Assembly (NCBI GenBank): GCA_027013815.1
Contig: JALWFY010000029.1
Span: forward strand, 1-58,790
Direction of reading: 5' to 3'
DNA length: 58,790 nt
DNA from: Desulfohalobiaceae bacterium
GTDB lineage: Bacteria > Desulfobacterota > Desulfovibrionia > Desulfovibrionales > Desulfothermaceae
Position numbers and translations under genes: made by a program. Each line of letters begins with the position of its first letter. Position 1 is the stretch's first letter. The notes below the pieces were generated by a model that worked only from the letters and a program-made list of their open reading frames with translations, made no database searches and was not told where the DNA came from. Below are positions 2,212-58,790 of this stretch, piece by piece.

Positions 2212-3115
2212 TTAAACTCTCTCTACCATTGTAGGTCTTTCTTCAAATGCTATAAAATTCATTATTAATTTCACCAATTGCTCTTTTTGTTCAGGTGGAC
2301 TTGCTGCTACAAGATAGCAAAGAGCTGTTAGGGTATTGCTGTTAAATTTAGTAAAAAGTTCTTGTTTTGAGATATTTTCATATAAAAATTACAAAAACAA
2401 AAGCGCGCCAATTCTCTTGTTTCCATCTACAAACGGATGATTTTTTATGACTAAATAAAGTAAATTTGCGGCTTTTTCCTCAAATGAAGGATAAAGTTCT
2501 TTACCGCCAAAACTTTGATAATATGATTTCAAGTAAACCTTTTACCTCTTTTGCAGTAAGAGAAGGGGAGTTAATATTGTCTTTTATAAACTTGACAGTA
2601 TTTACAAGCTCTTTTAATTTTTCTTTTGTAAGTCTTTTTTCATTGATTACATAGCCCTTAACAAGGTAATTTTTCAAAACATTTGTTGCCTAGATTCTAA
2701 ACTTAGTTGCTTTTTTAGAATTTACACGGTAACCAACGGCGATAATTACATCAAGGTTAAAATATTCAATTGTTCTTTTTACTTTTCTCTTACCCTCAAT
2801 TTGAACTGTTGCAAATTTTGCAACAGTTGAATCTCTTTCTAACTCACCGAAGCAAAGCTTCGGTGAGTTTGGCCTTTCAGGCCAAATGTTTAAATAAGGA
2901 ATATTTCCTTATTAAAAAATATGCGTAAGCACTAAGCGGAACTTTAGTTCCGCTGATTCAAAAATATTTCTAATATGTCTTGAAATAAATGATTTATCTT
3001 TTTCAAGTAAGGTGGCAATTTGATTAAGACTCAGCCAAATTGTTTCTTCCTTTAGCTGAACTTCAATTTTTTTATCCTTATCCTCAAAAATCACTAACTG
3101 ATTTTCATCCTTCAT
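2212..3115 (-). pseudogene. rhuM: RhuM-family protein with Fic domain, broken and interrupted
   Basis: The N-terminus (from the ATG at 3115) gives IWLSLNQIATLLEKDKSF and HIRNIFE, the RhuM start. A hairpin element then intervenes (2841-2954). Coding resumes with GELERDSTVAKFATVQ, RTIEYFNLDVIIAVGYRVNS and TKFRI, where a TAG stop replaces the usual Trp. Further on comes a Fic motif, [16 protein letters not shown], followed by a TAA stop, and the frame ends with LVKLIMNFIAFEERPTMVERV. Intact relatives are RhuM-Fic fusions of mobile regions; Fic domains transfer AMP. At least two internal stops plus the insertion make this a clear pseudogene. A further short coding-like stretch (LPIQYKKSEFLDQLK...LENLEKIEI) lies at 2097-2216 and is not recognised. 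Confidence 0.8.
2841..2954. repeat. Multi-hairpin element, copy A (inside the rhuM pseudogene)
   Basis: Four palindromes in order: AACTCACCGAAGC/GCTTCGGTGAGTT with an AAA loop (2841-2869); TTTGGCCT/AGGCCAAA with a TTC loop (2868-2886); AATAAGGAA/TTCCTTATT with a TAT loop (2893-2913); then GCGTAAG (2923-2929) and AGCGGAACT/AGTTCCGCT with a TT loop (2935-2954). The same order occurs at 20150, 29704 and 54661. The outer arm AACTCACC belongs to the rhuM coding sequence. Confidence 0.85.
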
Positions 3116-3177: not shown

Positions 3178-3440
3178 CTTAATCCTCATAAGTACAATGG
3201 CTAATTTTTCATCAGCATTCCATTTGCTCCTTTTCATAGGCAATCATCCCAAATGATTTCTAAAAGTTAGAGTTTACAACCTTCATAACACTTTCCTCGA
3301 TTCTAACTCTACCTTCTTTTTGTGTCCAATCCATTTGGGAGCAGTATATTTTATCCTCTATTGCAAAATTAAAATTACACTCAAATTGTTGACAAAAATT
3401 GTTACATAACATACGTATGTTTAAAAAAAATAATACAAGA

Positions 3441-3610
3441 TATAACGTTCTAGGTACCTTTAAGGTTTAAAAGGGAATCCGGTGTAAATCCGGAGCCGGC
3501 CCGCGGCTGTAACCAAGGACGAAAGCCGCAATATGCCACTGGAAAGCAGAAGTTTTCTGGGAAGGCGCGGTGAGTAGGAAGATCTGGAAGCCAGAAGACC
3601 TGCCTGGGAT
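3441..3610 (+). promoter_or_regulatory. Cobalamin riboswitch (B12 element)
   Basis: The conserved core reads in order: GGGAATCCGGTGTAAATCCGG, then GCCGGCCCGCGGCTGTAACC, GCCACTGG, GGGAAGGCG and the B12 box AGCCAGAAGACCTGCC (3589-3604). This is the adenosylcobalamin-sensing fold that normally represses vitamin B12 uptake or synthesis genes. A perfect 10-bp hairpin (3616-3649) and an intrinsic terminator (3684-3723) follow and probably form the expression platform. The gene it should control is reduced to a fragment at 3749-3859. Confidence 0.95.
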
Positions 3611-3683
3611 TTTGCCTTTAGGTTAGACGAGGTTTATTTTAACCTAAAGAAGAACTTTCAGAAAAATTTGGGGATAAAACGGG

Positions 3684-13735: not shown

Positions 13736-13838
13736 AAATTATGGATTTTAAATTTTGTATGTTGGATTGATACTTATCAGTTTCGGCTTTAATTCCTAAA
13801 TCCAAAATTCAAAATCCATAGTTCAAAATTTTTTCAGT
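13736..13838. repeat. AT-rich inverted repeat (ATTATGGATTTTAAATTTT family)
   Basis: AAAATTATGGATTTTAAATT with TATGTTGGATT (13737-13768) is followed about 30 bases later by its near-complement, AAATCCAAAATTCAAAATCC and ATAGTTCAAAATT, ending TTTTTTCAG. The same pattern occurs at 19956-20108, and parts of it at 29836-29870 and 54769-54805. It fills the frr-uppS gap. Confidence 0.75.
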
Positions 13839-19955: not shown

Positions 19956-20108
19956 AAAAAATTTTGGATTTTAAATTTTAGATGTTGGATTAATATTCAT
20001 TTTACTGTGAATTGTGAGCAGTGAACTGTCAATGTTTTATACACCTATTCTACCTTGAACATAGAACATAATTTAAAATCCATAATCCAAAATTCAAAAC
20101 CTTTTCAG
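19956..20108. repeat. AT-rich inverted repeat, second copy
   Basis: AATTTTGGATTTTAAATTTT with GATGTTGGATTAATATTCA (from 19959) is answered about 85 bases later by AAAATCCATAATCCAAAATT and CAAAACCTTTTCAG. The layout and the TTTTCAG end match the copy at 13736. The inner part contains GTGAATTGTGAGCAGTGAACTG. It lies directly upstream of hairpin element copy B. Confidence 0.75.
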
Positions 20109-20149
20109 ATCGAGCCTTATAACAGGGTTTACAGTTTGCCTTTGACCTT

Positions 20150-20263
20150 AAAGTGAAGCTCTGCTTCACTTTATAGTGGCCTTTCAGGCCATTTTTAATA
20201 AGGAATAAATCCTTATAATAGGCGTAAGACCTTAGAAGTGGAACTCCGTTCCACTTCTAAGGT
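20150..20263. repeat. Multi-hairpin element, copy B (plsC-dedA gap)
   Basis: In order: AAAGTGAAGC/GCTTCACTTT with a TCT loop (20150-20172); ATAG; TGGCCT/AGGCCA with a TTC loop (20177-20191); ATAAGGA/TCCTTAT (20198-20216); GCGTAAG (20222-20228); and a perfect 16-bp stem, ACCTTAGAAGTGGAAC with its complement and a TCC loop (20229-20263). It has the same orientation as copy A. It lies between the 5' ends of no gene: both neighbours are on the minus strand, so it would be transcribed if dedA and plsC share a message. Confidence 0.85.
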
Positions 20264-29701: not shown

Positions 29702-29703
29702 CT

Positions 29704-29893
29704 AAAGTGGAGCAAAGCTCCGCTTTAAAAACTTACGTTTATTATAAGGATTTTTTCCTTATTAAATTTGGCCTGCAAGGCCACTATAAAGTGAAGCAGA
29801 GCTTCACTTTAAGGGCTTACGCGTTTCATGATGAAAAATTATGGATTTTAAATTTTGAATTTTGGATTATAAAGCGGAATAGAGTTCCACTCT
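29704..29893. repeat. Multi-hairpin element, copy C (array of three stems, reverse orientation)
   Basis: It begins three bases after the helicase stop. Plus-strand order: AAAGTGGAGC/GCTCCGCTTT with an AAA loop (29704-29726); CTTACGT; ATAAGGA/TCCTTAT (29744-29762); TGGCCT/AGGCCA with a GCA loop (29769-29783); AAAGTGAAGC/GCTTCACTTT with an AGA loop (29788-29810); AAGGGCTTACGC; an AT-rich spacer (ATTATGGATTTTAAATTTTG); and AAAGCGGAAT..GTTCCACTCT (29871-29893). Read on the minus strand it has the order of copies A and B, extended by one stem and an alternative spacer. Confidence 0.85.
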
Positions 29894-30093
29894 ATTGAAA
29901 GACCAATTCCCTGTGAATTAGATATAAGTCCATAAAAAGGTCTTGACAAAATCCATATTATTCCATAGCTAATTTTAATTATGGTACTTAATATCGCATC
30001 TATCCCCGATATTTGGAATATGAATTGGTGGCGTTTTTGGGGAGAGGTGCGGTCTGGCCTAGATTCTGTTTAGGTTGAGGTATAAAAAAGGTC

Positions 30094-31171: not shown

Positions 31172-31182
31172 AAACTAATAAC

Positions 31183-31390
31183 AAACTAAAGTTCCGAAAA
31201 CTGCAGGTTAATATGAAAGGTGGCAAAAGGCACATGAGGCAAAAGGCTAAAGGCAGAAGGCGAAAACCATTAATATAATTTTAGATGTTGAATTTTGGAT
31301 TTTGGATTAATTCTTTTTTCATTCAAAATTTAGAATTTATAATTCAAAATTAAAATTAAAAAATAGCCTTTAGCCTTCAGCCTTTAGCCT
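31183..31390. repeat. AT-rich repeat with AAAGGCTAAAGGC arms, in the dctP-dctQ gap
   Basis: It starts AAACTAAAGTTCCGAAAACT and runs through AAAGGCTAAAGGCAGAAGGC, then AT-rich ATTTTAGATGTTGAATTTTG and TTCATTCAAAATTTAGAATT, and ends AATAGCCTTTAGCC. A related copy with the same parts in the same order lies at 58499-58665 between pstS and pstC. The remaining gap to dctQ (31391-31642) holds only a short imperfect inverted repeat (GCAGACTACAG/CTGTAGCCTGC). Confidence 0.75.
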
Positions 31391-31642
31391 AAGGTGGATT
31401 TAGAAAAAACGTAAATTTTTTCATGTTGTTGAAACAAAAAGCCTATTAATAGCAGACTACAGGTATCAGATAGGAGGATAAAATCCATCAAAAAACTGTA
31501 GCCTGCAACCTAATTATATATAATTGATAATTGAAAATGGAGAATGGAGAATTAAAAACATATTGAACATATTGATAATCTTAGACAAAAATGAGATAAA
31601 AATATATTGCCAAAGCCAAAAACTAAAATCCAAGATATAGAT

Positions 31643-44564: not shown

Positions 44565-44790
44565 TATAAAAACTATTTTACATAAACCAATGTTCCGAAA
44601 ACTGTATGTTGTTTTTAAGTGTTAGGTAAATTAAATTCTAGGTTTTAGTTTTTTTTGTAATTTGATACATATTTACAACTAGCGAGGGGCAATTTATGAA
44701 TTTTCTCTACTAAAAAACGCAATTTTTTTATTTTTTAAAAGAAAAAGCTTAGAGATGTAGGTTAAAGATTTTATAACTAGGAGCCGAACA

Positions 44791-50885: not shown

Positions 50886-51276
50886 ATACCCTTCCCTTGA
50901 CCTGTTTTTATATGTTTAGAATAAGACACTAAAAAATTATTCATGTTCCAACTAGTTAGGACATGATGTTGATCCAGAAGAGGTTCTTTTTTTGGATAGT
51001 AAATATATAGGGATAGATAAAAATTAAGGCATGTTAAAAACATTATGGAGTCCCCTTTTAAATCACAATTTCCTGCTGAAAATTAATTATTTTACAATAG
51101 GAGTCATCAGCCCATGTACTGCAGGCAGTTTAAGGGGGACTCCGTCCCCATCTTTATTTAAAAGATTCTATATATTAAGGATCAAAATTGTCAAGCGATG
51201 CCTAAAAAAGGAGCTATAAAAACTTTGTAATAAGATTATCCCATAAGGAATACATACATATAATTTCCAATATTTT
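50886..51276. other. Gap between the mutS-like pair and the LOG gene
   Basis: About 390 bases without a supported gene. A short stem GGGGAC/GTCCCC with a TCC loop (51135-51149) resembles, on a small scale, the end stems of the multi-hairpin elements. The promoter of the mutS-like pair must lie here, but I see no convincing motif. Confidence 0.4.
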
Positions 51277-54660: not shown

Positions 54661-54850
54661 AAAGTGGAACAAAATTCCACTTTATCTTGGCCTTTCAGGC
54701 CATTTTTAACAAGGAATAAATTCCTTATAATAAGCGTAAACCCTTAAAGTGAAGCTCTGCTTCACTTTATAATCCAACATCCAAAATTTAAAATCCAAAA
54801 TTTTTCCTTATAATAGGCGTAAGCCCTTAAAGTGGAACTCTATTCTGCTT
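54661..54850. repeat. Multi-hairpin element, copy D (array of three stems, phoR-pstB gap)
   Basis: Order: AAAGTGGAAC..ATTCCACTTT with an AAA loop (54661-54683); TGGCCT/AGGCCA with a TTC loop (54688-54702); AAGGAA/TTCCTT (54711-54726); GCGTAAA; CCCTT and AAAGTGAAGC/GCTTCACTTT with a TCT loop (54746-54768); an AT-rich spacer, ATAATCCAACATCCAAAATT; GCGTAAG (54817-54823); CCCTT and AAAGTGGAAC..ATTCTGCTT (54829-54850). The last stem forms the end of phoR: the final seven codons and stop lie in it. Confidence 0.87.
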
Positions 54851-58446: not shown

Positions 58447-58498
58447 ACTCCCTTCTCCTTGTATTTGGGTATTTGGGGACCGTCCTTTATTTAATAAT

Positions 58499-58665
58499 AA
58501 ACTAAAGTCCCGAAGATTGCATATTGGTATAAAAGGCCACAAGGGACTAAAGGCTAAAGGCATTGGTATAATTTTGGATATTGAATTTTGTATTGATCTC
58601 TTTTTCATTCAAAATCCAAAATTTATAATTCAGAATTAAAATTCAAAAATAGCCCTTAGCCTTTT
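58499..58665. repeat. AT-rich repeat with AAAGGCTAAAGGC arms, pstS-pstC gap
   Basis: Plus-strand order: AAACTAAAGTCCCGAAG, ATTGCATATTGGTATAAAAGG, ACTAAAGGCTAAAGGC, ATTTTGGATATTGAATTTTG, TTCATTCAAAATCC, TTCAGAATTAAAATTC, AATAGCCCTTAGCC. This matches the order at 31183-31390. The two arms (AAAGGCTAAAGGC and GCCCTTAGCC) allow a long foldback. It lies between the binding-protein gene and the first permease gene. Confidence 0.75.
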
Positions 58666-58670
58666 TCATA

Positions 58671-58790
58671 CTAATACAAGGGAATATAGCCTGCTTTTTT
58701 TACTAACTTTTGGCCTTTATATGGATTTAATACATAATTTATAAATTTTGCCACATCCCCTTTGGGCCATCCACTTGTAAACATATATAA
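58671..58790 (-). CDS. pstS: Phosphate-binding protein PstS, C-terminal part
   Basis: The last 39 codons, running off the window, read LYMFTSGWPKGDVAKFINYV then LNPYKGQKLVKKAGYIPLY and a TAG. This is the C-terminal signature of PstS-type periplasmic phosphate-binding proteins (GxVaxFIxFvLSPeGQkIVEkeGYIPl). It is the first gene of the pst cluster, upstream of pstC on the same strand. Confidence 0.85.
   Translation of the reverse strand, partial: LYMFTSGWPKGDVAKFINYVLNPYKGQKLVKKAGYIPLY

What the first reader, a model, noticed from the sequence alone, without database searches (positions are those of the whole stretch)
20150..20263. A family of modular multi-hairpin elements with fixed order and tri-nucleotide loops
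Seen directly: at 2841, 20150, 29704 and 54661 the same parts occur in the same order: a GAAGC/GGAAC-type stem, TGGCCT..AGGCCA, AAGGA..TCCTT, GCGTAAG, then another GAAGC/GGAAC-type stem. Stems are kept even when their sequence differs, and loops are mostly three bases (TCT, TTC, TCC, AAA, GCA). Arrays C and D show the unit can be extended in tandem, with either the TGGCC/AAGGA spacer or an AT-rich spacer between stems. A tetramer-plus-stem layout recalls REP elements with GTAG, but the architecture is different. I know of no described family with this order. Inference: a non-autonomous mobile element or an RNA-level regulator.
Basis: seen in the sequence. Interest (0 to 1): 0.78.

Follow-up and report, generated by a model that had tools for sequence, protein, structure and literature searches.

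The report
Species-specific modular multi-hairpin DNA repeats
This bacterium's genome carries about 60 scattered copies of a roughly 115-base repeat made of five tiny back-to-back hairpins, a mobile-looking element found in no other genome searched, whose perfectly matched hairpins look maintained by DNA copying rather than by a job as RNA.

Summary
The four window copies (one on the minus strand) belong to a family with about 60 sites in this 2.59 Mb genome and none in three congeners or 27 other relatives. An exact-pattern scan of 85,000 species genomes gave only chance hits. Fifteen of 34 tested pairs show changes on both sides (0/500 shuffles). Units chain by sharing the end hairpin. There are three subfamilies. 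One sits inside a second repeat that has at least 20 copies without it, others lie in a RhuM gene and a transposase gene, so the element looks mobile. The covariation need not mean RNA function: H1/H5 mismatches are strand-symmetric, and loops are almost all RRR or YYY in near-equal numbers, as expected if polymerase template switching repairs arms and flips loops. No RAYT/IS200 transposase, end tag or target-site duplication was found, so it is not filed as a REP, REPIN, BOX or MITE. Best reading: a new non-autonomous hairpin element with an unknown mobiliser, placed like REPs beside gene ends.

The parts
2841..2954 (+). Copy A, subfamily III unit (H1 ACCGAAGC-type, H2, H3, H4 TGC-GTAA-GCA, H5 AGCGGAAC); interrupts a RhuM-family gene on the minus strand
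   Evidence: (89.2 bits)
20146..20262 (+). Copy B, subfamily I unit; H1 about 20149-20173, H2 about 20177-20191, H3 about 20198-20216, H5 about 20230-20262 (15 bp perfect stem)
   Evidence: (117.9 bits)
29702..29814 (-). Copy C, subfamily I unit, starts 1 base after the stop codon of a helicase gene
   Evidence: (114.1 bits)
29786..29897 (-). Second, AT-rich-spacer unit of copy C, sharing the hairpin at 29786-29814
   Evidence: 49.9 bits
54657..54770 (+). Copy D, subfamily I unit
   Evidence: 113.7 bits
54742..54853 (+). Second, AT-rich-spacer unit of copy D, sharing the hairpin at 54745-54769; ends over the 3' end of a histidine kinase gene
   Evidence: (54.6 bits)
31176..31442 (+). Copy of a second repeat family ('RepB', ~270 nt) WITHOUT the hairpin unit; about 17 other copies in the genome carry a subfamily II unit at the place that corresponds to ~31207-31219 here

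Best explanation
A short (110-120 bp, up to ~240 bp with an AT-rich insert) non-autonomous interspersed DNA element that has multiplied in one lineage. Each unit is a chain of five hairpins, and the two end hairpins H1/H5 are near-equivalent palindromes that also serve as the joints of tandem arrays. Shown: copy number, fixed order, pairing kept across sequence change, three subfamilies, insertion into another repeat, into a RhuM-family gene and into a transposase gene, near-exclusive intergenic placement, and absence from relatives. Inferred: (1) it is spread as DNA by an enzyme acting in trans that recognises the end hairpins; (2) the perfect arms and flipped loops come from polymerase template switching inside each hairpin; (3) it persists because it lands beside gene ends where damage is small, possibly acting there as a weak terminator or mRNA 3' protector, as REPs are thought to.
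For: About 60 sites in this genome, none in 3 congeners and 27 further relatives with the same model, and no real hit in 85,000 species genomes with an exact pattern (all 7 hits read as chance). Covariation: 15 of 34 pairs changed on both sides, score 0.256 against 0.146 shuffled, 0/500; one-base slides drop pairing from 90.5% to 47-49%. Insertion into RepB: at least 20 copies run straight through the site without it, about 17 carry it. Copy A splits a RhuM-family gene; a unit follows LLVLKK in an IS3-type transposase gene on C205. Syntenic loci B and C in congeners lack it. DNA-level signature: in subfamilies I/III 27 loops are all-purine, 24 all-pyrimidine and only 2 mixed (after removing 5 spurious matches to ACAAAGT-TCC), with both kinds at the same position; H1 and H5 mismatches are 10 G.T against 11 A.C and 8 against 9. 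Template switching is known to homogenise arms and invert spacers (PMC8604942, abstract; PMC8794818). Congener samples have 0.6-0.7 perfect GC-containing hairpins per 10 kb and no adjacent pairs, the window 1.9 and 4.
Against: No target-site duplication above permuted flanks (mean longest shared string 4.79 against 4.47, 35/500). In RepB the insertion replaces about 7 bases rather than adding cleanly. No RAYT; the only reverse transcriptase is a DGR; one broken IS110 fragment. No clean empty site in another genome. Subfamily II copies are ~96% identical and may descend from a single insertion carried along by RepB.
Confidence: 0.62

Rival explanations
1. RNA-level element: the units are kept because, once transcribed, they act as 3' mRNA stabilisers, attenuators or terminators, and structure is under selection in RNA.
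For: Very close to gene 3' ends and stop codons and to the 3' ends of tRNA-Ser and tRNA-Leu; a GTAA (GNRA) loop is common in H4; strong RNA folding z-scores; G.T exceeds A.C in H2 and H3 (9 against 1, 10 against 4).
Against: Both orientations relative to genes; no U-tract after the stems; H1/H5 mismatches strand-symmetric; loops flip between purine and pyrimidine; H4 also uses GTTA and GAA; both strands fold equally well; total absence from congeners.
Confidence: 0.18
2. By-product of replication or repair: no transposase; copies arise by template switching and non-homologous recombination among hairpins, as suggested for hairpin repeats of organelle genomes.
For: No TSD; chimeric junctions between repeat families (L041, L099, L104); messy, non-clean insertions; no candidate transposase; no SbcD-family match over the curated cut-off in any of the four genomes of the genus.
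Against: Copies have well-kept ends at H1 and H5, and solo hairpins are nearly absent (about 1 of 50), which suggests a defined unit. The lack of a clear SbcD is shared with the congeners, which have no such repeats.
Confidence: 0.15
3. Relics of the ends of an insertion sequence or phage that has since been lost.
For: Cluster of four units around a transposase fragment on C205.
Against: That transposase is single copy, the unit lies inside it rather than at IS ends, and no phage or viral contig holds the element.
Confidence: 0.05

Closest known systems
REP / REPIN / BIME elements with RAYT (TnpA-REP)
   Same: Short extragenic palindromes, placed near gene 3' ends and supplying stop codons, paired units, compensatory changes, clusters (PMC3733652, PMC3116915)
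   Different: No Y1 transposase in the genome, no GTAG or CGTC end tag seen, end hairpins almost never solo, three further hairpins between them
BOX elements of Streptococcus pneumoniae (boxA-boxB-boxC)
   Same: Modular unit with repeatable middle, species burst, insertion of families into one another, intergenic (PMC3049150)
   Different: BOX has TIRs and TSDs and folds its ends together; here every module is a local hairpin and arrays share the end hairpin; no direct sequence comparison was run
Rickettsia palindromic elements (RPE)
   Same: Palindromic repeats that can sit in frame inside genes; here a partial unit is in frame near the C-terminus of a DHH/DHHA1 protein
   Different: Nearly all copies here are intergenic; sequence and architecture differ (RPE comparison from general knowledge and PMC3733652)
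Repetitive / double hairpin elements of mitochondrial genomes (sponges, Allomyces)
   Same: Chains of small hairpins, tandem joining, lack of flanking duplications reported for Allomyces, species-level spread (PMC2800124)
   Different: Organelle genomes; in sponges stems are conserved and loops vary, here stems covary and loops invert
MITEs in general
   Same: Short, AT-rich, structured, many copies, no coding capacity
   Different: No TSD and no parent transposon found

Membership tests
REP/REPIN (RAYT-mobilised) | Extragenic palindromes in tens of copies | tested here: met
REP/REPIN (RAYT-mobilised) | Y1 (RAYT/IS200-like) transposase in the genome | tested here: not met
   PF01797 absent from own genome, found in 5 of 14 controls; assembly 95% complete
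REP/REPIN (RAYT-mobilised) | GTAG or CGTC unpaired end tag | tested here: not met
   no constant tetramer seen by inspection outside H1 or H5 in the copies and their flanks
REP/REPIN (RAYT-mobilised) | Solo palindromes common as remnants | tested here: not met
   about 1 of 50 exact end hairpins is solo
MITE | Target-site duplication | tested here: not met
   19 copies only, no strain-level empty site available
MITE | Terminal inverted repeats shared with an IS of the host | tested here: inconclusive
   ends are palindromes; no IS with such ends found, but the genome could not be scanned for all IS
BOX | boxA/boxC ends that pair with each other around boxB | tested here: not met
   local hairpins only; no direct sequence comparison with BOX was run
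Structured RNA family in Rfam | Match to a curated covariance model | tested here: not met
   only cobalamin and fluoride riboswitches in the window, elsewhere
Template-switch-maintained inverted repeats | Arm homogenisation and spacer inversion | tested here: met
   patterns across copies; direct mutation events not observed

The most novel reading that the evidence does not exclude
A self-contained class of bacterial mobile DNA whose unit is a chain of single-strand hairpins, spread by an as yet unknown hairpin-recognising enzyme other than RAYT, and in which the hairpins flip in place (loop inversion), so that each copy records template-switch or cruciform-resolution events.
Probability: 0.2. 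Interest if true: 0.75.

Novelty: new variant of a known kind. Interest (0 to 1): 0.45.

Why it matters
It adds a family with an unusual five-hairpin, joint-sharing architecture to the small palindromic repeats of bacteria, in a genome that lacks the usual REP transposase, so its spread needs another explanation. Its loops and stems give a natural test of an open point: how far compensatory changes in repeated hairpins reflect RNA selection and how far they are printed by DNA polymerase template switching. That matters to anyone who reads covariation as proof of a functional RNA.

Tried and rejected
RAYT/IS200 partner: absent. Retron or group II intron partner: the only RT belongs to a diversity-generating retroelement with bAvd. 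IS110 partner: one broken fragment at a contig end. IS3-type transposase on C205 as partner: single copy, unit lies inside it. Species-specific loss of SbcD as the permissive cause: no match over the curated cut-off in any of the four genomes of the genus, so it does not discriminate. Phage or plasmid origin: no phage match, viral hits are chance matches; plasmid records were not searched. Rfam: no family. Integron attC sites: the GTTAGCA string resembles a core site but does not fit GTTRRRY and subfamily I lacks it (inspection). TSD search: negative. Own multi-hairpin families in congeners: none in 230 kb of G003 and 396 kb of G001.

Full report
OBSERVATION. The four copies were read directly. 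Copies A, B and D are on the plus strand; copy C is on the minus strand. Each unit is H1 - H2 - H3 - H4 - H5. H1 is AAAGTGGAAC-NNN-GTTCCACTTT (or GTGAAGC, GCGGAGC, GCGAAAC, ACCGAAGC types). H2 is TGGCCT-NNN-AGGCCA, or TTGGCC-ATT-GGCCAA-like in subfamily II. H3 is TAAGGAAT..ATCCTTA. H5 is of the H1 type. Folding of either strand as DNA or RNA gives this chain of local hairpins, with z-scores of -8 to -11 for DNA and -6 to -9 for RNA.

COPY NUMBER AND RANGE. The window is contig C29 of a draft genome (2.59 Mb, 219 contigs, 95% complete). A blastn query with copy B gives 75 matches there and none in 60 relatives. A covariance model (R1, from 22 copies) gives 103 matches at E <= 0.01. Many of these are the two orientations of one nearly symmetric site, and I count about 65-70 units at roughly 60 sites. 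The same model finds nothing in 30 relatives, including three of the same genus. A loose exact pattern over 85,000 species genomes gave 7 hits, about the number expected by chance by my estimate, and none continues as the element on inspection. Phage records and viral contigs do not hold it. Limits: the model search scores only the best candidates of a first look in each genome, and near relatives of the source record may be left out of the public collections.

SUBFAMILIES AND MODULARITY. Subfamily I (copies B, C, D; 21 high-scoring copies, mean identity 73%), subfamily II (12 copies, 96%) and subfamily III (copy A, L108, C205; about 79%) were separated by sequence (one RepB copy, L031, fell into the group of five called III by that script). 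Subfamily I also has a long form in which H3 is split by an AT-rich palindrome of about 80-110 bases (L003, L040, L043, L011). That palindrome also exists alone in the window at about 13737-13837 and 19957-20115. Arrays share the joint hairpin: tandem units on C54 and C99, and unit plus AT-spacer unit at copies C and D. End hairpins outside units are rare: of 50 exact matches to AAGYGRARCNNNGYTYCRCTT (0 for the reversed control) only C170:22001 appears solo.

MOBILITY. Four kinds of evidence. (1) The family is absent from congeners that keep gene order at about 73% identity; at loci B and C their intergenic regions contain other sequence. (2) Subfamily II sits at one position of a second repeat, RepB (about 270 nt): at least 20 RepB copies, including window 31176-31442, run through that position without it, while about 17 have it. 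The filled form replaces about 7 bases (ATATGAA), so the insertion is not clean, and the composite may have spread as one. (3) Copy A interrupts a RhuM-family gene; the downstream piece matches PF13310. On C205 a unit ends the reading frame of an IS3-type transposase (PF01527). (4) Chimeric junctions between element families occur (L041, L099, L104). Not found: target-site duplications, RAYT, a retron or group II intron (the one RT is a DGR), or a multi-copy transposase with matching ends (not exhaustive).

WHERE IT SITS. Of 68 matches (some sites counted twice), 37 lie between genes read in the same direction, 10 between convergent and 11 between divergent genes, 3 overlap an ORF, and 7 could not be classed, mostly because a contig or stretch ends there. 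Many abut stop codons or the 3' ends of tRNA-Ser and tRNA-Leu within a few bases, as described for REPs (PMC3733652). A partial unit (C27:14913-15009) is in frame near the C-terminus of a DHH/DHHA1 protein, as RPEs do. In subfamilies I/III my hand count of units between co-directional genes gave about 7 in the gene direction and 17 against it, a weak bias.

WHAT THE COVARIATION MEANS. Pairing is kept through change: 15 of 34 pairs have changes on both sides, and every measure exceeds all 500 shuffles (relatedness inflates this, but slid controls collapse). Three facts point to DNA rather than RNA as the level at which this arises. First, mismatches in H1 and H5 are as often A.C as G.T (11 v 10; 9 v 8); H2 and H3 lean to G.T, so this is not uniform. 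Second, loops of H1/H5 in subfamilies I/III are all-purine 27, all-pyrimidine 24, mixed 2 (after removing five spurious matches), where about a quarter would be expected to be unmixed by chance; identical stems carry AAA or TTT, TCT or AGA. That is most simply in-place inversion of the hairpin. Third, some arms match through indels and long extensions (L021, L033, copy B). Template switching between arms is known to homogenise arms and invert spacers (PMC8604942) and to create and maintain hairpins (PMC8794818). I therefore read the stems as maintained by this process, with selection on RNA possible but not required.

COMPARISON. Closest in placement are REP/REPIN elements, but the transposase test fails and no end tag was seen. 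Closest in modularity is BOX, but ends do not pair and no TSD was found. Closest in appearance are the multi-hairpin repeats of some mitochondrial genomes (PMC2800124), where a lack of flanking duplications was noted for Allomyces. I file it in none of these. It works like a REP-type, non-autonomous dispersed palindrome and is a new family with a new architecture.

VERDICT. Real, structured, lineage-specific and probably mobile; mechanism of spread unknown; RNA function unproven.

Noticed in passing
window 31176-31442, 58492-58690, 44577-44750; about 50 matches in the genome: A second interspersed repeat ('RepB'), left end CAAACTAAAGTTCCGAAAACTGCAGG, right end AACGTAAATTTTTTTCACGTTTTTGAAATAAAAAGC, with nested AAGGC/GCCTT and AT-rich inverted repeats; mostly upstream of and co-directional with genes. 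Its left motif also occurs in repeated form in congener G003 (L163, L199/L200), with a different interior.
   Followed up: partly
window 13737-13837, 19957-20115: Stand-alone AT-rich palindromic repeats (GGATTTTAAATTTT..AAAATCCAAAATTC) that also form the insert of the long form and the spacer of arrays.
   Followed up: partly
L182 963-2283 (genome contig C137): Diversity-generating retroelement: bAvd-like accessory protein (PF22296) and a 336 aa reverse transcriptase.
   Followed up: partly
L105 1470-2489 (C27:14869-15888): DHH/DHHA1 protein whose C-terminal region is encoded in frame by part of the hairpin element (H3-H5).
   Followed up: partly
window 3435-3621 (+), 51091-51158 (-): Cobalamin and fluoride riboswitches (Rfam matches).
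   Followed up: no
L045 1596-2084 (C205): IS3-type transposase gene cut short by a subfamily I unit and flanked on both sides by subfamily III units.
   Followed up: partly
genus G000-G003: No SbcD-family match over the curated cut-off in any of the four genomes (only weak, below-cut-off matches in three).
   Followed up: no
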